Below, piece by piece: positions 18,658 to 25,498 of a DNA stretch of 64,000 nt; position 1 is the first letter of the stretch, and every line of letters starts with the position of its first letter. The notes below the pieces were generated by a model, which saw only the letters and a program-made list of their open reading frames with translations, did no database searches and was not told where the DNA came from. The position numbers were made by a program, and so were the translations under genes. This stretch comes from Leeia oryzae DSM 17879 (GTDB lineage: Bacteria; Pseudomonadota; Gammaproteobacteria; Burkholderiales; Leeiaceae): positions 1-64,000 of the forward strand of contig NZ_AQXU01000024.1 in assembly GCF_000376945.1 (NCBI RefSeq). The letters are read 5' to 3'.

Positions 18658-19503
18658 ATGTCTTGGAGCACGTTGATTTCTGCGGACGCCTTGCTGTCCA
18701 TTCCTGCTGATAAAGTCATTGTGGTGGATTGCCGTCATCAGTTAACGGACCCGGAATATGGACGGCGAGCGTATGCTGCCGGCCATGTGACCGGCGCGCG
18801 CTTTTTTCATCTGGATGAAGACCTGTCCGGTACCAAAACGGGTGTGAATGGTCGTCATCCTTTGCCGCCAGCCGACGTGCTCGCCACCAAGCTGGCTGCT
18901 GCTGGCATCCATAACGACACCCAGGTGGTGGCGTATGACGACGCAGGCGGCATGTATGCGGCCCGCTTGTGGTGGTTGTTACGCTGGCTGGGGCACGAGT
19001 CGGTCGCCGTGCTGGATGGCGGTCTGGCGGCCTATGAACGGGTCGGTGGCGTTTTGACGACAGAGGTGCCTGTACCGGTTGCCGGCAGTTTTTCCATTCG
19101 CCCATCGCTGGAAAAGACCGTCTCTGCGACGGATATCCTGACCGCTGACAGTCATCTGCTGGTGCTGGATGCCCGTGCTCCGGGACGTTATGCCGGTGAG
19201 GGCGAAACCCTTGACCCAGTGGGTGGGCATATTCCAGGCGCACGTAATCATTTTTTCCAGCAGAATCTGGATGCCGATGGCCGCTTCAAGTCGCCGGACG
19301 TGTTGGCGGCTGCATTTGCGGGTGTGCTTGCCGGTACACAACCGGATCAGGTCGTAAACCAGTGCGGCTCTGGCGTCACTGCCTGCCATAACCTGCTGGC
19401 CATGCAATATGCCGGTTTACCGGGGGCCATGCTGTATCCGGGCTCCTGGAGCGAATGGTGTGCGGATGCCACCCGTCCGGTGGCGATTGGTCCCAATCCG
19501 TAA
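18658..19503 (+). CDS. sseA: 3-mercaptopyruvate sulfurtransferase (two-domain rhodanese)
   Basis: A 281-residue enzyme with two rhodanese domains (about 5-130 and 155-275). The first is inactive and the second carries the catalytic cysteine C236 in the loop CGSGVTA. That loop is characteristic of mercaptopyruvate sulfurtransferases, whereas thiosulfate sulfurtransferases usually have CRKGVTA. It moves sulfur from 3-mercaptopyruvate to cyanide or thiols. It starts 3 bases after rlmL, so the two form an operon, and ends 7 bases from convergent lpxH without a visible terminator. Confidence 0.9.
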   Translation: MSWSTLISADALLSIPADKVIVVDCRHQLTDPEYGRRAYAAGHVTGARFFHLDEDLSGTKTGVNGRHPLPPADVLATKLAAAGIHNDTQVVAYDDAGGMYAARLWWLLRWLGHESVAVLDGGLAAYERVGGVLTTEVPVPVAGSFSIRPSLEKTVSATDILTADSHLLVLDARAPGRYAGEGETLDPVGGHIPGARNHFFQQNLDADGRFKSPDVLAAAFAGVLAGTQPDQVVNQCGSGVTACHNLLAMQYAGLPGAMLYPGSWSEWCADATRPVAIGPNP

Positions 19504-19510
19504 GCGGTTA

Positions 19511-20239
19511 TCAGGCTTCAAACTGGTGGAGTGAGAGCTGGTGCTGGTGGAGATGCAGATAACCCCAGTGCTGGCCGTGCCAGTCGGGCAATACCCAGCG
19601 TGTGCGTGTTTGCTGGTCTAGCTGCACATGATGGCAGGCAGGGCGGTGGGTGTGCCCATGAATCATGACGCAGTCAGGGTGCGCTCTGAACAACGCTGCC
19701 ACGGCTTCTGGATTGACATCCATGATCTGCATGGATTTGATCTGTTTTTGCTGTTCGCTCTGGGCGCGCAAACCATTGGCAATCTCACGACGCTCCGTCA
19801 GCGGTTTGGCCAGAAAGCTGGCCTGCCACTCAGGTGAACGAACGTGCTGCCGGAATTGCTGGTACTGAGCATCATCTGTGCACAGCTCATCACCATGCAG
19901 TAGCAGCAGGCTCAACTGGCCAATGCGAAGCAGATGGGGGGCGGCAATCAGCCGCATGCCGGCCTGACGGGCAACCTCCGAACCCACCAGAAAATCCCGG
20001 TTGCCATGCATGTAATACAGATTCACGCCGCGATCGGATGTTGATGTCAGGGCAGCAATAATCTGCTGGTATTCGGGCGCAACGGCCGCATCATCCCCAA
20101 TCCAGGCATCAAAAAAATCCCCCAGCATATACAGTTGATCGCCACTTTTTAGCGTGGGCAGCCAGGCCAGAAAATTCGAGGTCTCAGCCAGGGTTTGGCC
20201 GGAAAGATGCAAGTCAGAGATGAAGTAGATGTCTGGCAC
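19511..20239 (-). CDS. lpxH: UDP-2,3-diacylglucosamine diphosphatase
   Basis: A 242-residue calcineurin-like phosphoesterase that cuts UDP-2,3-diacylglucosamine to lipid X in lipid A synthesis at the inner face of the membrane. Metal-binding motifs appear in order: ISDLHLSG (near 7), LGDFFDAWIGDD (near 39), MHGNRDFLVG (near 78), LLLHGDELCTDD (near 112) and MIHGHTHRPA (near 193). The start codon is GTG with a weak ribosome binding site. It lies downstream of two cyclophilin genes on the same strand, separated by an 80-base gap with a strong hairpin. Confidence 0.94.
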   Translation of the reverse strand: MPDIYFISDLHLSGQTLAETSNFLAWLPTLKSGDQLYMLGDFFDAWIGDDAAVAPEYQQIIAALTSTSDRGVNLYYMHGNRDFLVGSEVARQAGMRLIAAPHLLRIGQLSLLLLHGDELCTDDAQYQQFRQHVRSPEWQASFLAKPLTERREIANGLRAQSEQQKQIKSMQIMDVNPEAVAALFRAHPDCVMIHGHTHRPACHHVQLDQQTRTRWVLPDWHGQHWGYLHLHQHQLSLHQFEA

Positions 20240-20272
20240 GGCAGGGTACCGGTAGGTGAGGGGGCAACGCTG

Positions 20273-20309
20273 GTATCGCCGGAAAACCCGTGAGGCATTC
20301 CGGCGATAC
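20273..20309 (-). terminator. Strong stem-loop between ppiB and lpxH
   Basis: GTATCGCCGGAA and TTCCGGCGATAC form a perfect 12-bp stem over a 13-base loop, 10 bases after the ppiB stop codon. No T-run follows on the minus strand, so termination may be partial or the hairpin may protect the ppiB message. Confidence 0.5.
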
Positions 20310-20319
20310 AGGGGACAGC

Positions 20320-20826
20320 TTAGTCTTCGATCAACTCGGCTTTATCGATCACGACGTCTTCTTTCGGCACGTCCTGATGGAAGCCGGCATTACCGGTTTT
20401 GACTTTGCGGATTTCATCCACGACATTTTGGCCTTCGGTCACTTTACCGAAAACGCAGTAGCCGAAGCCCTGGGAGGTCGGTGCACGGAAGTTCAGGAAG
20501 TCATTGTCGGCCACGTTGATGAAGAACTGGGCGGTGGCGGAGTGAGGATCCGGTGTACGGGCCATGGCAATGGTGTAGCTGTCGTTTTTCAGACCGTTGC
20601 TGGCTTCGTTCTCGATCATGTCACGTGTTTCTTTTTGTTTCATGCCTGGTTCGAAACCGCCGCCCTGAATCATGAAGCCATCAATTACACGGTGGAAAAT
20701 GGTACCGTCGTAGAAGCCGGCTTTGACGTATTCAACAAAGTTGGCTACCGTTTTCGGCGCTTTTTCGGCATCCAGCGCAATTGTGATATCACCAAAGCGG
20801 GTGCTCAGTTTGACGGAAGTAGACAT
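20320..20826 (-). CDS. ppiB: Cytoplasmic peptidyl-prolyl cis-trans isomerase (cyclophilin)
   Basis: A 168-residue cyclophilin that speeds proline isomerisation during folding. It lacks a signal peptide, so it acts in the cytoplasm. Active-site motifs are [21 protein letters not shown] (split around residues 39-59), [20 protein letters not shown] and [11 protein letters not shown]. The start ATG has AAGGA close upstream. It is preceded by a second, exported cyclophilin gene 89 bases away on the same strand, an arrangement that gives one enzyme per compartment. Confidence 0.95.
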
Positions 20827-20915
20827 TAGGATTCCTTTACTAAAATGGCTGTCTGATTATGTGTGGTGTGTTGCTCGGGGCGACATTGCGGATACGGACA
20901 AGGCCACCCGGGGCA

Positions 20916-21566
20916 TCAGGTCGTCTTTTTCTTGACGACTTTTTTCTTTACTGCCGGTTTTTTTGCCGGGGCTGCCGGGCTAGCGGGCGCGGCCTCTGCA
21001 ATGCGGGTAATGGATTCAATCACGACATCGTTAGTCGGTACGTCATCAAAATTACCCACAGCATGGGTCGGTACGGTCGATATTTTTTCTGCGACCTCAT
21101 ACCCTTTGACGATTCTGCCGAACACGGCATAACCGATATAGTCCGGTTGCGGCTTGTAGAAGTTCAGGTGCTTGTTGTCGTTCAGGTTAATGAAAAACTG
21201 GCTGGTGGCTGAGTCTGGGTCGTTGGTGCGTGCCATGGCCAGAGTGCCCGGCTTGTTTTGCAGAAGCGGACTGGCTTCATTCTTGATCGGGTCATGTGTC
21301 GGCTTTTGTTTCAGGCCAGGGGCAAAACCACCACCCTGAATCATGAACTTGGCAATGGTACGGTGAAACACCGTCCCGTTATAAAAGCCGCTGTCGACAT
21401 AGCTGAGGAAGTTCTTAACGGTGAGCGGTGCCTTGTCGGCATACAGCTCGGCCACCAGTGTACCGGTGTTGGTCTTGATTTCGACCATCGGGTTGTTGGC
21501 ATACGCAACACCCACTAGCAGTGCACAGGCAGCCACCATGCTTTGGCATAAAAACTTCAGTTTCAT
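20916..21566 (-). CDS. ppiA: Periplasmic peptidyl-prolyl cis-trans isomerase (cyclophilin)
   Basis: A 216-residue exported cyclophilin. Residues 1-23 are a signal peptide (cleavage near GVAYA-NN). The catalytic core shows NGTVFHRTIAKFMIQGGG, LAMARTNDPDSATSQFFINL and GYAVFGRIVKGYE. Beyond the usual end, the protein has an Ala/Pro stretch and a strongly basic tail KKPAVKKKVVKKKTT, which could bind the acidic cell envelope or nucleic acid; this is speculation. The ATG has AAGGA upstream. It follows the L,D-transpeptidase gene by 16 bases and may be read with it. Confidence 0.92.
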   Translation of the reverse strand: MKLKFLCQSMVAACALLVGVAYANNPMVEIKTNTGTLVAELYADKAPLTVKNFLSYVDSGFYNGTVFHRTIAKFMIQGGGFAPGLKQKPTHDPIKNEASPLLQNKPGTLAMARTNDPDSATSQFFINLNDNKHLNFYKPQPDYIGYAVFGRIVKGYEVAEKISTVPTHAVGNFDDVPTNDVVIESITRIAEAAPASPAAPAKKPAVKKKVVKKKTT

Positions 21567-21582
21567 AGGGTATCCTTAATGC

Positions 21583-22833
21583 TCAGGAAGCATCTTCAAA
21601 AACAATTTTCCAATTGCCATCAATGCGCTGCCAGTACTGGCGTTTCATACTGGTGCCACTGGCGACATTACTCTGATAAGACTGTTCAAAGGTGGCGACC
21701 ATCAAATCCGGTTTGCCTGGGTAAGCCAGCAGGCTCAGGTTATCAACCTTGACCTTGACCCATTTACGCGTGGCATTGACCGCCATTTTTTGCGCTTTCC
21801 ATGCCGCCAGATCCATGGCGCCCGACTTGAACGTATTGGCATAATGGGTCAGGTAGCGGTTGGTATCCAGACTTTCCCAGTCTTTCCGCCATTGTTCTAC
21901 CTGACTCTCCAATACCTGTTTAGTCTTGTGGTTTTCCAGAGAGTTCACCCAGTTGAACTGCTTGCTGATAATCACCGGTGTTACGCCTACCTGAAGGTAT
22001 TTCTTCAGGGCGTTCAGATCCGGGTTGGTCAGGGCTACACAGCCATTGGACGACAGGGGCGGGCGGCTGTAGGTGCCGGACGGGCTGCCGTGCAACCAGA
22101 TGCCATGCCCGGTTCTGCCTTCACGACGATCCCACTCATTCGGATAATTGAGCGGGAAGGCGGCATCGCCATACATGTCTGGCAGGGTGCTCTTTGGCAG
22201 TTCCGAGGTGACAAAATACACGCCCAGCGGGGTCCGCTGGTCGCCTTCGACATACTTGTCGTAACCGTTCTTGCCAATGGTGATATAAAAGTCATCCACC
22301 CGTTTCGGCAAGCCGTTGTCATTTTCGTACACGTACATGCGAGACTTGGTCACGTCGACTGCCAGCAGGTAACGCTGGGCCGGGGACATTTTGACCACAT
22401 TGGCCGGAATCTGGTCAGCCGGCACATCGGCCGTGTAATGACCGATCCGGACCTTGGCTTCATGCCGCAGGTCATTGAGTGCATCTTGCTGGATGGCGGT
22501 CAGGTTGCCCAGATTGGAAATGGGCTGCTGGCGGGCCAGTAGCAGGTCGCCCTGGATCAGGTGCGCCAGTTTGTAGTTGGGGTACTCGGTCAGCAGCTGG
22601 TTGAGCATGCGCTGCGCATTCTCGAGGTCGCCCTGGCGCATGAACGAAATCACACGAATCAGCTGCTCTTCCGGCCGTTTGTGGCCTTGGGTCAGCGGAA
22701 TTTCGCCAAGATGCTGAATGGCAGCCGCATCCGCGCGGATGCTTTGCGCCGGATGCAGGGAAATATTCCCCATGGAGCTCATGGAGGCTGCCGGCAATAC
22801 CGTCAGAATCAGTGCACAGGTACGTTTGATCAT
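21583..22833 (-). CDS. L,D-transpeptidase with C-terminal NTF2-like (Cds6-type) domain
   Basis: A 416-residue exported enzyme that cross-links or modifies peptidoglycan. Residues 1-25 resemble a signal peptide. A helical region near 50-120 is followed by the YkuD catalytic domain with HGSPSGTYSRPPLSSNGCVA: the nucleophile is C265 and its partner is the histidine of the HG motif. The last 110 residues (from VEQWRKDWESLDTNRYL) form an NTF2-like domain of the kind named Cds6 C-terminal domain. That domain is clearly related to the end of the product of the gene just upstream. The start is uncertain: ATG at 22833 gives a sensible signal peptide, while a GTG at 22869 would add 12 residues. Confidence 0.86.
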   Translation of the reverse strand: MIKRTCALILTVLPAASMSSMGNISLHPAQSIRADAAAIQHLGEIPLTQGHKRPEEQLIRVISFMRQGDLENAQRMLNQLLTEYPNYKLAHLIQGDLLLARQQPISNLGNLTAIQQDALNDLRHEAKVRIGHYTADVPADQIPANVVKMSPAQRYLLAVDVTKSRMYVYENDNGLPKRVDDFYITIGKNGYDKYVEGDQRTPLGVYFVTSELPKSTLPDMYGDAAFPLNYPNEWDRREGRTGHGIWLHGSPSGTYSRPPLSSNGCVALTNPDLNALKKYLQVGVTPVIISKQFNWVNSLENHKTKQVLESQVEQWRKDWESLDTNRYLTHYANTFKSGAMDLAAWKAQKMAVNATRKWVKVKVDNLSLLAYPGKPDLMVATFEQSYQSNVASGTSMKRQYWQRIDGNWKIVFEDAS

Positions 22834-22874
22834 GATGCCCGCGCTGGATAGGGTTTTCTTATGTGGCACGATAC

Positions 22875-24059
22875 TTAACGACCGACTCGTTCTTCAATGA
22901 TCACCCAACGGTCGCCGCTTTTGCTAAGCACCAGTGTCTTGGGGGTGACGCTCTTGAGTGCATCGGACTTGTAAGACTGGCTGAAGGTAACCTTGGCCGT
23001 CTTGTCATCAATAAAGGTGACCGACGGCTCATTGATACCGACCGCAATCGATTTGGGGGCCGAGATGCGGTCTTTGCGCTCGCTCTCCCAGTCTTTGCGG
23101 CTCAAGCCTTTAGGCGGGTGGAAGTCTTTGCCATAAGCGCTAAGGTAGGACGATACTCTCTGGCCGGACCAGGCCTGTGCCCAGGATTCGACGGCGCGAA
23201 CCACCGGTTTGCTGTCACGTGGCGTGTCGGCCACTGGTTTTGTGTCCGGTTTGGCATCCGCTTTTGCGGTGGTATCAGGCTTGGTTTTGGTATCTGCCGG
23301 TTTGGTGGCGGTATCCGGTTTTGCCTTGGCATCCGCTACCTTGATGGCAGGCTTGGCGGCGGCATCTGCCGTTTTGCTGGCATCCGGCAACTTGTTCTCT
23401 ACCGATTTTGCATCGACCGGTTTGGCAACCGGGATGGTTGTTGTGTCAACCGGTTTGACCGGCGGTGGTGTTACAGGCTTGGTACTGACATCGACCGGCG
23501 CAATGGTGGCCAGTTTGACCGGATCAGCGGCTGGGGCAATCTTGCCGCCCCCGCTCTTGCGGGAGAACAGCTCACGCACCATCGTCAGCTTGATCTGGGC
23601 ATTGGCATTGCCCTTGTCCAGCTGCAACGCTTTGCTATAGGCCTGACTGGCCATCTCGGCGTAAATGTCGCCCAGGTTTTCGTGGGCAGTGGCATAGCTT
23701 GGATGGGTCTGGATGGCCATTTGCAGCGCCTGACGGGCTTTGTCAAACTGCTTTTGCTGTGCGTACAGCACGGCCAGGTTGTTATAGGGTTCTGGCAGGT
23801 CCGGGAAGTCTTCGGTCAGAGCCTGGAATACCTTGATGGCGTCCGATGATTTGCCAAGCTCGGCCAATGCCAAACCTTTGGCGAAACGTACCTGGGCATC
23901 TTTCGGGAACTTGACCAGATACTGGTTTGCCCGGTCGACGGCTTGGGTGCTTTGTCCTTGCTTGATCAGTTTGCCGATTTCTTGTGCTTCATCGGCCAGT
24001 GCAGGCAAGGCAGCCAGGGCAAGGCAGATAGGCAGGAGTCGCAAGGCGCTAATTTTCAT
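22875..24059 (-). CDS. Exported TPR protein with NTF2-like C-terminal domain
   Basis: A 394-residue protein. Residues 1-22 are a signal peptide (ALPALA-DE). Residues 25-165 are about four TPR units (for example YNNLAVLYAQQKQFDKARQAL), which usually mediate protein contacts. A linker of about 110 residues, rich in Lys, Pro, Asp, Thr and Ala with repeated KPDT/KPAD units, leads to a C-terminal NTF2-like domain (VESWAQAWSGQRVSSYLSAY to the end). That domain aligns with the end of the neighbouring L,D-transpeptidase. The 41-base gap suggests one operon. A joint periplasmic role in cell-wall work is an inference; no enzyme motif is visible here. Confidence 0.82.
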   Translation of the reverse strand: MKISALRLLPICLALAALPALADEAQEIGKLIKQGQSTQAVDRANQYLVKFPKDAQVRFAKGLALAELGKSSDAIKVFQALTEDFPDLPEPYNNLAVLYAQQKQFDKARQALQMAIQTHPSYATAHENLGDIYAEMASQAYSKALQLDKGNANAQIKLTMVRELFSRKSGGGKIAPAADPVKLATIAPVDVSTKPVTPPPVKPVDTTTIPVAKPVDAKSVENKLPDASKTADAAAKPAIKVADAKAKPDTATKPADTKTKPDTTAKADAKPDTKPVADTPRDSKPVVRAVESWAQAWSGQRVSSYLSAYGKDFHPPKGLSRKDWESERKDRISAPKSIAVGINEPSVTFIDDKTAKVTFSQSYKSDALKSVTPKTLVLSKSGDRWVIIEERVGR

Positions 24060-24155
24060 GGCAGGTAGTGGCTTTTCAAATCTCGGTTAAACTGGTGGAT
24101 TCTACCAACACCTGATAGGTACTACAATTGCATCTTGCCCGCTTTGCGCTTTCTA

Positions 24156-24180
24156 CACGCCTTTTGCAACAAAAGGCGTG
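24156..24180. other. Perfect stem-loop in the intergenic gap
   Basis: CACGCCTTTTG and CAAAAGGCGTG form an uninterrupted 11-bp stem over a 3-base loop, between the TPR gene's 5' side and the transporter gene's 3' end. Both flanking genes are on the minus strand, so it could mark the end of the transporter message. No T-run lies directly after the stem on either strand. Confidence 0.5.
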
Positions 24181-24262
24181 CTGCAGAAGCCTGAGGCGAT
24201 TCATGTTTGATTGCTGACTATGCTCGGTTAATTGCGATCTGTTGTTTGAGCATCCAAATATC

Positions 24263-25498
24263 TTAATGAAAAGCCAGGTAGAAGCCAGTCATTGCCAGCG
24301 TGATCAGGGTGATCGGTACGCCGACACGTGCATGGCATCGCCAATCAATCGTGATTTTCTGTCTGGCCGCCGCATCGATGACAATGATATTGGCGATGCT
24401 GCCGACAATCAGCAAATTGCCTGCAAAGGTACTCGCTAGCGCAAGTAAAAGTCCGCTCGTCTCGTGATTTGCGACCGGTAGCAGCAACATGACGGCAGGA
24501 ACATTTGACACCAGATTGGATAGGACGAATGTGGCAAAAAACAGGTGTGATGTCTGTTCTAATTGAATGCCTTTTTGAGCCAGAAACTGGATGGATTCCG
24601 CACTGATGCCGGTTTGTTGGAACGCATGATTGACCACAAAGAGGCTCATGAAGAGTACCAACAACTCCCAATCTACCAGTCCCAGCATTTTGCGGGAATG
24701 CAGTTTTCGGCTGGTCAATAAAATCCCCGCGCCAATTAACGCGACATATTCCGTAGGCCAGGGCCCCACAAGGAAGGCGATTAATAATCCTGCTGCGACG
24801 AGCAGTCCTTTTGTCGTTTGCCAGGGGTCAAATGGCATTAAGTCATCAGTGCCCAGGCTAGGTGAAGCAGGGGTAGATGAATCTAAGGCGTTGAGTTTCC
24901 ATTTACCTTTGGTTTGCCAAGCAATGAGCGCCCAGCAAATGAATAGTCCGAGGGCGACAGGGATGATGGCATCTAGGAAATAGGCGCCAAAAGATATTTT
25001 GAGCGATTGGCCGATGAGCATGTTTTGAGGGTTGCCAATCAATGTTGCCGCGGATCCGATATTGGCTGCACATGCAAGGGCAAGAAGGTAGGGAATGGCC
25101 GCTACTTGCCGTTTTCTGCATACATCAATTAAGACAGGGGCTATCGCTAAGCAGACGATGTCATTGCTGAAAATCGCGGATAGGACGGCGGTAACGATAA
25201 TTAAAGCACCCAAAAAACCTGCAGGGCCGACCCCTAGCCGACCTAGTTTATGCGTGATCCAGTCATAAAATCCTCCCAGGCGCATCTGAGCAGAAACCAC
25301 CATGAAGGAAAAAAGCAGGATGATTGTTGGCAGGTTAATTGCTTTTACCGCCTCATCCAAACTCATGGCATTGATACTGATGATCGCGATTGCACCGAGT
25401 AACGCAACGCCTGTTCGGTCAAGCTGAAGAAATGGCAAGCCACCCAGGATCATGCCTATGTATACGATGAGAAAAATAATCAGGATTGAAAGCGTCAT
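24263..25498 (-). CDS. ArsB/NhaD/CitM superfamily (SLC13-like) anion or ion transporter
   Basis: A 411-residue inner-membrane protein with about 10-11 hydrophobic helices. Motifs fit the ion transporter superfamily holding ArsB, CitM and P-type proteins: FSNDIVCLAIAPVLID near 110, NIGSAATLIGNPQNMLIG near 145, SNLVSNVPAVMLLLP near 330 and STFAGNLLIVGSIANIIV near 362, which are the paired NxxT/SNVPAV-type substrate loops. The ion carried is not decided; arsenite, sulfate or carboxylates are possible, and no arsR or arsC gene is nearby. Codons are richer in A/T than in the flanking genes. The gene stands alone between the TPR gene and glnS. Confidence 0.82.
   Translation of the reverse strand: MTLSILIIFLIVYIGMILGGLPFLQLDRTGVALLGAIAIISINAMSLDEAVKAINLPTIILLFSFMVVSAQMRLGGFYDWITHKLGRLGVGPAGFLGALIIVTAVLSAIFSNDIVCLAIAPVLIDVCRKRQVAAIPYLLALACAANIGSAATLIGNPQNMLIGQSLKISFGAYFLDAIIPVALGLFICWALIAWQTKGKWKLNALDSSTPASPSLGTDDLMPFDPWQTTKGLLVAAGLLIAFLVGPWPTEYVALIGAGILLTSRKLHSRKMLGLVDWELLVLFMSLFVVNHAFQQTGISAESIQFLAQKGIQLEQTSHLFFATFVLSNLVSNVPAVMLLLPVANHETSGLLLALASTFAGNLLIVGSIANIIVIDAAARQKITIDWRCHARVGVPITLITLAMTGFYLAFH

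What the first reader, a model, noticed from the sequence alone, without database searches (positions are those of the whole stretch)
21583..24059. Adjacent L,D-transpeptidase and TPR genes end in the same paralogous domain
The last 105-110 residues of both products align by eye. Both begin VE-W...W, continue with Y...Y...F, a tryptophan near W-K or W-E, a strand ending in F-QSY-S, and close with a G-x-W-x-I-x-x-E pattern (DGNWKIVFED and SGDRWVIIEE). One is attached to a YkuD cross-linking enzyme, the other to TPRs plus a KPDT-rich linker of about 110 residues. Seen directly: the shared pattern and the 41-base spacing. Known: the domain is NTF2-like (Cds6 type). Inferred: the two proteins arose by domain duplication, may dimerise through this domain, and act together at the cell wall.
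Basis: partly seen in the sequence, partly recalled or inferred. Interest (0 to 1): 0.55.

Follow-up and report, generated by a model that had tools for sequence, protein, structure and literature searches.

The report
Paired cell-wall trimming enzyme and scaffold
Two neighbouring bacterial genes, one probably for an enzyme that trims the cell-wall mesh and one for a likely scaffold protein, end in the same probable wall-gripping domain and are kept together across many bacteria, which suggests that they remodel the wall as a team.

Summary
The YkuD protein (21583-22833, -) and the TPR protein (22875-24059, -) both end in Pfam Cds6_C, an NTF2-like domain (E 1.6e-27 and 1.6e-14). Profile-profile comparison gives 99.7%, E 2.2e-26; both models have Bdellovibrio Bd1075 as best PDB match. 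The pair is conserved: 78 of 80 named relatives carry it side by side, and it also occurs outside the order with other neighbours.

The YkuD enzyme looks like a Csd6/Pgp2/Bd1075-type L,D-carboxypeptidase, not a cross-linker: it has the Csd6 active-site residues and lacks the arginine after GC[IV]. In other orders a secreted MpaA-like M14 peptidase, expected to use its tripeptide product, often sits beside it. NTF2-NTF2 dimerisation is not supported: the ligand pocket is kept in both proteins, the enzyme-facing residues only in the enzyme's copy. The domain duplication looks older than the order.

Cds6_C also occurs on BamE-, TolC-, ShlB- and FimV-like proteins, so it may be a general wall-anchoring module. 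Activity, wall binding and partnership are inferred, not shown.

The parts
22875..24059 (-). TPR-NTF2 protein gene (394 aa): signal peptide, TPR domain, disordered linker, Cds6_C domain
   Evidence: signal peptide read by eye
23559..23996 (-). TPR helical domain, residues 22-167
   Evidence: Pfam TPR families; model helices, block pLDDT about 95 over most of it
23214..23552 (-). disordered A/P/K/T-rich linker, residues 170-282
   Evidence: pLDDT about 45-60; length 29-123, median 71, in the family
22884..23210 (-). Cds6_C NTF2-like domain of the TPR protein, residues 284-392; pocket residues W293 W297 Y305 Y309 F313 R328 Y363 K374 E390
21583..22833 (-). YkuD-NTF2 protein gene (416 aa), probable L,D-carboxypeptidase
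22432..22674 (-). TPR-like helical N-terminal region, residues 54-134
   Evidence: weak TPR matches below cut-off; helices in the model
21967..22371 (-). YkuD catalytic domain, residues 155-289
   Evidence: Pfam YkuD 8.6e-21
22039..22092 (-). catalytic motif H248-G249 ... C265 with GCVA (no arginine after GCV)
   Evidence: contrast GCIR in the genome's other YkuD ORF
21595..21912 (-). Cds6_C NTF2-like domain of the YkuD protein, residues 308-413; pocket residues W315 W319 Y327 Y331 F335 K349 Y386 K397 E413
20916..21566 (-). cyclophilin with signal peptide, starts 16 bases downstream; conserved neighbour within the order, absent beside the pair in other orders
20320..20826 (-). second cyclophilin, conserved neighbour within the order
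19511..20239 (-). calcineurin-like phosphoesterase, LpxH by recall; conserved neighbour within the order

Best explanation
The two genes form a peptidoglycan-trimming unit of the periplasm. (1) The YkuD protein is an L,D-carboxypeptidase of the Csd6/Pgp2/Bd1075 kind: it removes the terminal D-Ala from tetrapeptide stems and leaves tripeptides, so lowering the supply of stems for cross-linking; its NTF2 pocket docks it on peptidoglycan. (2) The TPR protein carries a paralogous NTF2 domain with the same pocket, held by a flexible linker to a strongly conserved TPR arm. It most likely grips the same wall and uses the TPR arm to hold a partner (the enzyme's TPR-like N-terminus or another wall factor), so that trimming is placed rather than diffuse. 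(3) In other orders the unit is completed by a secreted MpaA-like M14 peptidase that would cut the tripeptides further, as Pgp1 follows Pgp2. Shown here: homology, pocket and active-site residues, predicted folds, linkage and co-occurrence. Inferred: activity, peptidoglycan binding by both pockets, and scaffolding.
For: Nearest solved relatives of the YkuD protein are Bd1075, Csd6 and Pgp2 by sequence (1.1e-42, 7.1e-32, 6.2e-21) and by fold (Bd1075 E 8.7e-28 over 281 columns, TM 0.87 by target; DpaA only 5.5e-7). Csd6 active-site positions in 73 aligned YkuD-type proteins: E110 69 of 73, Y133, W158, H160, G161 and C176 73 of 73 each; the position after GC[IV] is V in 65 and A in 8, never R, while the genome's other YkuD ORF has GCIR. 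Nine of 13 Csd6 pocket positions tested are kept in YkuD-type (38), TPR-type (40) and other (26) domains, K258 as K or R. Linkage: 39 of 40 fetched order loci, 125 of 154 genomes in printed rows, 78 of 80 named loci, 40 of 60 positive genomes of the class survey. In 20 paired loci of other orders none of seven window neighbours was found. Secreted M14: beside the YkuD gene in 11 of those 20 loci; present in 32 of 60 Cds6_C-positive against 5 of 309 negative genomes, adjacent in 23; in the order 13 of 13 M14-positive genomes are Cds6_C-positive. Papers (passages): Pgp2 NTF2 pocket binds peptidoglycan (PMC8038945); Bd1075 NTF2 domain targets it to the outer curve (PMC8938487); Pgp2 makes the tripeptide substrate of the M14 enzyme Pgp1 (PMC3961634, PMC3310789).
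Against: H155, needed in Csd6 for activity, is H in only 37 of 73 and 20 of 31 family members (it is H in the window), and one relative (L067) has lost the catalytic cysteine. Four of 13 pocket positions (246, 257, 268, 307) are not kept, and R245 was not tested. The window's genome has no secreted M14 at E <= 1e-40; in the order the M14 gene is not beside the pair where both places were seen. The M14 query came from nine paired genomes of the same set; without them the class count is 23 of 51 against 5 of 309, and the test is not corrected for phylogeny. Within the order the flanking cysS, cyclophilin and lpxH genes are conserved too, so linkage there is not specific. Three of 15 fetched TPR-type loci have no YkuD gene nearby (L107, L108, L120), and L202 has the enzyme without the TPR gene. 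Nothing shows that the two proteins touch. Its M14 neighbours score below NCBI's MpaA cut-off.
Confidence: 0.6

Rival explanations
1. The enzyme is a true L,D-transpeptidase (3-3 cross-links), and the TPR protein helps it.
For: Pfam names the domain 'L,D-transpeptidase catalytic domain'; the His/Cys motif is shared by both activities.
Against: Nearest solved relatives are carboxypeptidases; no arginine after GC[IV] in 73 of 73; co-occurrence and adjacency with an MpaA-like M14 peptidase that would use tripeptides. The Csd6 paper reports carboxypeptidase activity only (passages).
Confidence: 0.1
2. The enzyme cuts or forms a bond between peptidoglycan and a protein, like DpaA or the Lpp-attaching enzymes, with the TPR protein as its target carrier.
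For: DpaA is the next fold match (5.5e-7); DpaA-like enzymes also have A at this position (PMC8938487 passages).
Against: NCBIfam DpaA 22.6 bits against a cut-off of 365; the NTF2 domain and fold match point to Bd1075/Csd6/Pgp2 instead.
Confidence: 0.1
3. Bystanders: the TPR-NTF2 protein is an independent wall-bound envelope protein and the pair is kept by old synteny.
For: cysS, cyclophilin and lpxH genes are conserved beside the pair in the order; the domain occurs on many unrelated envelope proteins; three TPR-type loci lack a YkuD gene nearby.
Against: In 20 paired loci of other orders none of those neighbours was found while the pair stays in the same order and strand (these 20 were chosen because paired).
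Confidence: 0.2
4. The two NTF2 domains form a heterodimer that joins enzyme and scaffold.
For: The domains are homologous and many unrelated NTF2-like folds form dimers (recalled).
Against: Csd6 dimerises through its N-terminal domain and its NTF2 sheet packs on the catalytic domain (PMC4599014 passages); Bd1075 is described as monomeric (PMC8938487 passages); the packing-face residues are lost in the TPR-type copy.
Confidence: 0.08

Closest known systems
Bd1075 of Bdellovibrio (7o21), Csd6 of Helicobacter (4xzz), Pgp2 of Campylobacter (6xj6)
   Same: YkuD carboxypeptidase fold followed by a Csd6-type NTF2 domain, same catalytic and pocket residues.
   Different: The window enzyme has a TPR-like N-terminal region and an adjacent TPR gene with a paralogous NTF2 domain. 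Bd1075 is called monocistronic (PMC8938487 passages); in the passages seen of the Pgp2, Csd6 and Bd1075 papers the term TPR or tetratricopeptide was found 0 times where searched.
Pgp1/Csd4 with Pgp2/Csd6 pathway
   Same: An M14 metallopeptidase that acts after the L,D-carboxypeptidase; here an MpaA-like secreted M14 gene sits beside the pair in 23 genomes of the class survey.
   Different: Not present at E <= 1e-40 in the window's genome, and the M14 gene here is closest to MpaA; similarity to Pgp1 itself was not tested.
NlpI, TPR adaptor of wall hydrolases in E. coli
   Same: Periplasmic TPR protein proposed as scaffold for wall hydrolases (PMC7049810 and PMC11211486, outline and abstract).
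   Different: Not an NlpI by model (24.1 bits, cut-off 250); no lipobox by eye; carries its own NTF2 domain.
Pfam PF24125 Cds6_C
   Same: Both domains are members over the curated cut-off.
   Different: Named for the enzyme; the TPR-type lineage and its spread to BamE-, TolC-, ShlB- and FimV-like proteins is described here.

Membership tests
Pfam Cds6_C (PF24125) | score over the curated cut-off of 27 bits | tested here: met
   96.5 bits (YkuD protein) and 54.6 bits (TPR protein)
Csd6/Pgp2/Bd1075-type L,D-carboxypeptidase | YkuD domain followed by NTF2-like domain in one chain | tested here: met
Csd6/Pgp2/Bd1075-type L,D-carboxypeptidase | catalytic His-Gly-Cys and Csd6 residues E110, Y133, H155, W158 | tested here: met
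   all present in the window protein; family-wide H155 only 37 of 73 and E110 69 of 73
Csd6/Pgp2/Bd1075-type L,D-carboxypeptidase | no arginine at the position after GC[IV] (A in Csd6/Pgp2, V in Bd1075) | tested here: met
   A in the window; V 65 and A 8 of 73
Csd6/Pgp2/Bd1075-type L,D-carboxypeptidase | N-terminal dimerisation helices (Csd6, Pgp2; absent in Bd1075) | tested here: inconclusive
   helical TPR-like N-terminal region; resemblance to the Csd6/Pgp2 motif by eye only
Csd6/Pgp2/Bd1075-type L,D-carboxypeptidase | cleaves tetrapeptide to tripeptide, no cross-linking | not testable with these tools
   needs an enzyme assay
cross-linking L,D-transpeptidase | arginine after GC[IV] (most members, per PMC8938487 passages) | tested here: not met
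   the other YkuD ORF of the genome has it
DpaA (LdtF) | NCBIfam NF040599 over its cut-off | tested here: not met
   22.6 bits, cut-off 365
NlpI | NCBIfam NF008391 over its cut-off | tested here: not met
   TPR protein 24.1 bits, cut-off 250
peptidoglycan-binding NTF2 pocket (Pgp2 type) | pocket residues kept | tested here: met
   9 of 13 positions kept in both proteins, K258 as K or R; 246, 257, 268, 307 not kept; R245 not tested
peptidoglycan-binding NTF2 pocket (Pgp2 type) | binds peptidoglycan | not testable with these tools
   needs a pull-down

The most novel reading that the evidence does not exclude
The Csd6-type NTF2 domain is a general peptidoglycan-reading module of betaproteobacteria and relatives. 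After an ancient duplication from the trimming enzyme it became a free anchor, first on the adjacent TPR scaffold, then on outer-membrane machines (BamE, TolC-like and ShlB-like proteins) and on FimV-like proteins. All would read the same stem-peptide state through one conserved pocket, so that the trimming enzyme next door, by turning tetra- into tripeptides, would write the signal that tells trimming, outer-membrane assembly and export where to act.
Probability: 0.3. Interest if true: 0.75.

Novelty: new variant of a known kind. Interest (0 to 1): 0.52.

Why it matters
Csd6, Pgp2 and Bd1075 are known as shape enzymes of helical or curved bacteria, and the Pgp2 paper says that the NTF2 domain appears restricted to helical cells (PMC8038945 passages). 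Here the domain is in 165 of 300 genomes of the order searched, mostly as an enzyme plus TPR-protein pair. Named carriers include Zoogloea and Dechloromonas, which I recall as rods. If the reading is right, these bacteria have a dedicated wall-bound scaffold for a trimming enzyme. BamE proteins that carry the same pocket would give a direct handle on how outer-membrane assembly senses the wall: in E. coli, tetrapeptide-rich wall binds and damps the BAM machine (PMC9242858 passages). The question of how trimming is confined to one side of a cell becomes testable in harmless environmental bacteria.

Tried and rejected
Recent duplication inside this genome: rejected, because the YkuD-type and TPR-type domains of the order fall on two sides of a starred branch (98/89). 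Limits: 114 columns for 107 rows, bootstrap not settled, the TPR group not one clade (3 changes), L070 outside the main YkuD-type fork.

Common origin of the two N-terminal TPR regions: only 24% identity over 37 residues, E 0.001, which any two TPRs may show; left open.

Structural second look at the TPR model: the list is filled by TPR chains, so it says nothing of the NTF2 domain. Foldseek had placed 7o21 first.

Promoter and terminator scan of 19400-24350: 5 promoter-like sites against 2.5 expected and 11 terminator-like against 5.9; not used.

Literature: no paper on this gene pair was found in searches of the held open-access library; subscription papers are mostly not held. The LDT review PMC12729407 has no mention of NTF2, TPR, Csd6 or Pgp2 in its main text (find). 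The Aeromonas homologue AHA0618 (PMC4398505, passages) aligns with the central part of Csd6 and is smaller, so it is not a case of this architecture.

Rows sorted by hand: for I split the printed rows into the two types, leaving out eight TPR-type rows and two second-domain rows; both tables were cut, so 154 of 165 positive genomes were seen and 125 paired is a lower bound. For the tree and pocket table I left out three of the 20 ORFs (L221, L222, L224). L210, L214, L215, L216, L217, L218 and L223 were named by eye, not by a Pfam scan.
Full report
OBSERVATION. Pfam Cds6_C matches both C-termini over its cut-off, direct BLASTP gives E 6e-6, and family profiles align over 109 columns with 99.7% probability, E 2.2e-26. 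The genome search shows only these two copies in the window's genome.

ANATOMY. AlphaFold2 models were made from alignments of 73 and 66 sequences. The YkuD protein has mean pLDDT 87.9, pTM 0.83: helical TPR-like region 54-134, YkuD domain, NTF2-like domain. The TPR protein has mean pLDDT 78.9, pTM 0.44: TPR helices 22-167, disordered linker, NTF2-like domain 284-392. Foldseek against the PDB puts Bd1075 first for both: TPR protein E 6.7e-9, 108 columns, 33% identity, rmsd 1.7; YkuD protein E 8.7e-28, 281 columns, 30% identity.

ENZYME TYPE. Mapped on Csd6 numbering, the window enzyme has E110, Y133, H155, W158, H160, G161 and C176. In 73 aligned relatives E is kept in 69, H155 in 37, the others in 73 each; in a second set of 31, H155 in 20 and the cysteine in 30. 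The residue after GC[IV] is V or A, never R. The other YkuD ORF of the genome reads GCIR. [quoted passage not shown] I therefore read the enzyme as an L,D-carboxypeptidase; activity is untested.

SAME POCKET, DIFFERENT BACK. Passages of the Csd6 and Pgp2 papers name the NTF2 pocket and the face that packs on the catalytic domain. Of 13 pocket positions tested, nine (223, 227, 235, 239, 243, 258, 297, 313, 329) are kept in most or all YkuD-type (38), TPR-type (40) and other (26) domains, with 258 K in 37 of 38 YkuD-type and R in 40 of 40 TPR-type; 246, 257, 268 and 307 are not kept. On the packing face, 278 is F/L/I/Y in 37, 280 is Y in 33, 281 is P in 37 and 316 is Y in 36 of 38 YkuD-type domains. 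In TPR-type domains 281 is a gap in 40 of 40 and the others are mixed; 290 and 292 do not separate the groups, and Bd1075 itself lacks Y280-P281. So the ligand site is shared while the TPR-type copy has lost the face that holds the enzyme. This speaks for a common ligand, by analogy peptidoglycan, and against a simple copy of the enzyme's domain contact.

LINKAGE. In the order 165 of 300 genomes have Cds6_C. Of 40 regions fetched from the list, 39 have the TPR-type gene directly upstream of a YkuD gene on the same strand; the exception is L073. From the printed, cut tables, 125 of 154 genomes show the pair, TPR-type 1157-1499 bases upstream (median 1251), and no other arrangement was seen. Of 15 regions fetched because the YkuD-type hit was missing from the list (L107-L121), 12 have a YkuD gene beside the TPR-type gene, in three of them without a detectable Cds6_C end (L111, L115, L119), and three have none (L107, L108, L120). 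Of the 80 best named matches, 78 have the pair; L166 starts at a contig end and L202 lacks the TPR gene; these are the nearest relatives, not a random sample. In two genomes of one family the YkuD gene has lost its domain and a separate small Cds6_C gene follows it (L071, L072), so enzyme and domain can work as separate chains.

CONTEXT. In the order the flanks are conserved too: among 80 loci a cyclophilin in 73, lpxH-like in 65, cysS in 59. In the class survey 60 of 369 genomes are positive and 40 of these have two Cds6_C hits 1128-1478 bases apart on one strand. In 20 of these from other orders, none of seven window neighbours was found beside the pair, so the pair itself is what is kept.

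M14 PARTNER. In 11 of these 20 loci a secreted M14 peptidase lies next to the YkuD gene. The five scanned by NCBIfam are nearest to murein tripeptide amidase MpaA, at 79-97 bits, below the cut-off of 157. Searched with nine of them at E <= 1e-40, it occurs in 37 of 369 class genomes: 32 of 60 Cds6_C-positive, 5 of 309 negative (Fisher p 2e-24, not phylogeny-corrected; 21 families among the 32); in 23 it is adjacent. The nine source genomes are in the set; without them it is 23 of 51. In the order 13 of 300 genomes have it, all 13 positive (p 4e-4). The window's genome has none at that threshold; it has two other M14 matches and one bactofilin. Pgp1 is an M14 enzyme that acts on the tripeptides made by Pgp2 (PMC3310789, PMC3961634, passages), so this association supports the carboxypeptidase reading.

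A MOBILE MODULE. Two same-genus genomes carry a third copy at the end of a TolC-like OEP protein (L125, L126). Pfam also finds Cds6_C with BamE (L212, L213 with two copies, L226), OEP (L209), ShlB (L219), FimV_N (L208), DctM (L073) and TPR plus a sub-threshold PgaA barrel (L211); L207 is a TPR protein with two copies. In the tree most of these lie on the TPR-type side; the L211 copy and the four copies of L215 and L216 do not.

VERDICT. A real, conserved and, in the papers searched, undescribed gene pair; a new variant of the Csd6/Pgp2/Bd1075 kind. The mechanism (wall-docked carboxypeptidase plus wall-docked TPR scaffold) is the best-supported reading, with the enzyme part stronger than the scaffold part.

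Noticed in passing
L125:4148-6031 (-), L126:2260-4065 (+): Same-genus genomes carry a TolC-like OEP protein that ends in Cds6_C; the window's genome has no third copy.
   Followed up: partly
L212:2808-3671 (+), L213:2485-3576 (+), L226:1742-2869 (+): BamE lipoproteins fused to one or two Cds6_C domains, a possible direct link between BAM and the wall.
   Followed up: partly
L219, L208, L073, L211: Cds6_C on ShlB-, FimV-, DctM- and TPR/barrel-type proteins. In L208 it lies before the FimV_N domain.
   Followed up: no
L071:2532-5217 (-), L072:2072-4902 (+): YkuD gene without Cds6_C, followed by a separate small Cds6_C gene: a natural split of the enzyme.
   Followed up: partly
L227-L246: Secreted MpaA-like M14 peptidase convergent with the YkuD gene in 11 of 20 loci.
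   Followed up: yes
genomes G115 and G220: Nine Cds6_C matches in one genome each; only part of those of G220 were looked at.
   Followed up: no
L215:2192-3466 (+), L216:2175-3428 (+): YkuD proteins that end in two Cds6_C domains in a row (YkuD read by eye).
   Followed up: no
window 22620-22671 (-): The YkuD protein's N-terminal LIRVI...GDLENA resembles by eye the dimer motif of Csd6/Pgp2 quoted in PMC8038945; the Csd6 dimer helices may be a reduced TPR-like hairpin.
   Followed up: no
L067:2544-3782 (-): A relative whose YkuD catalytic cysteine is replaced by arginine while the pair is kept.
   Followed up: no
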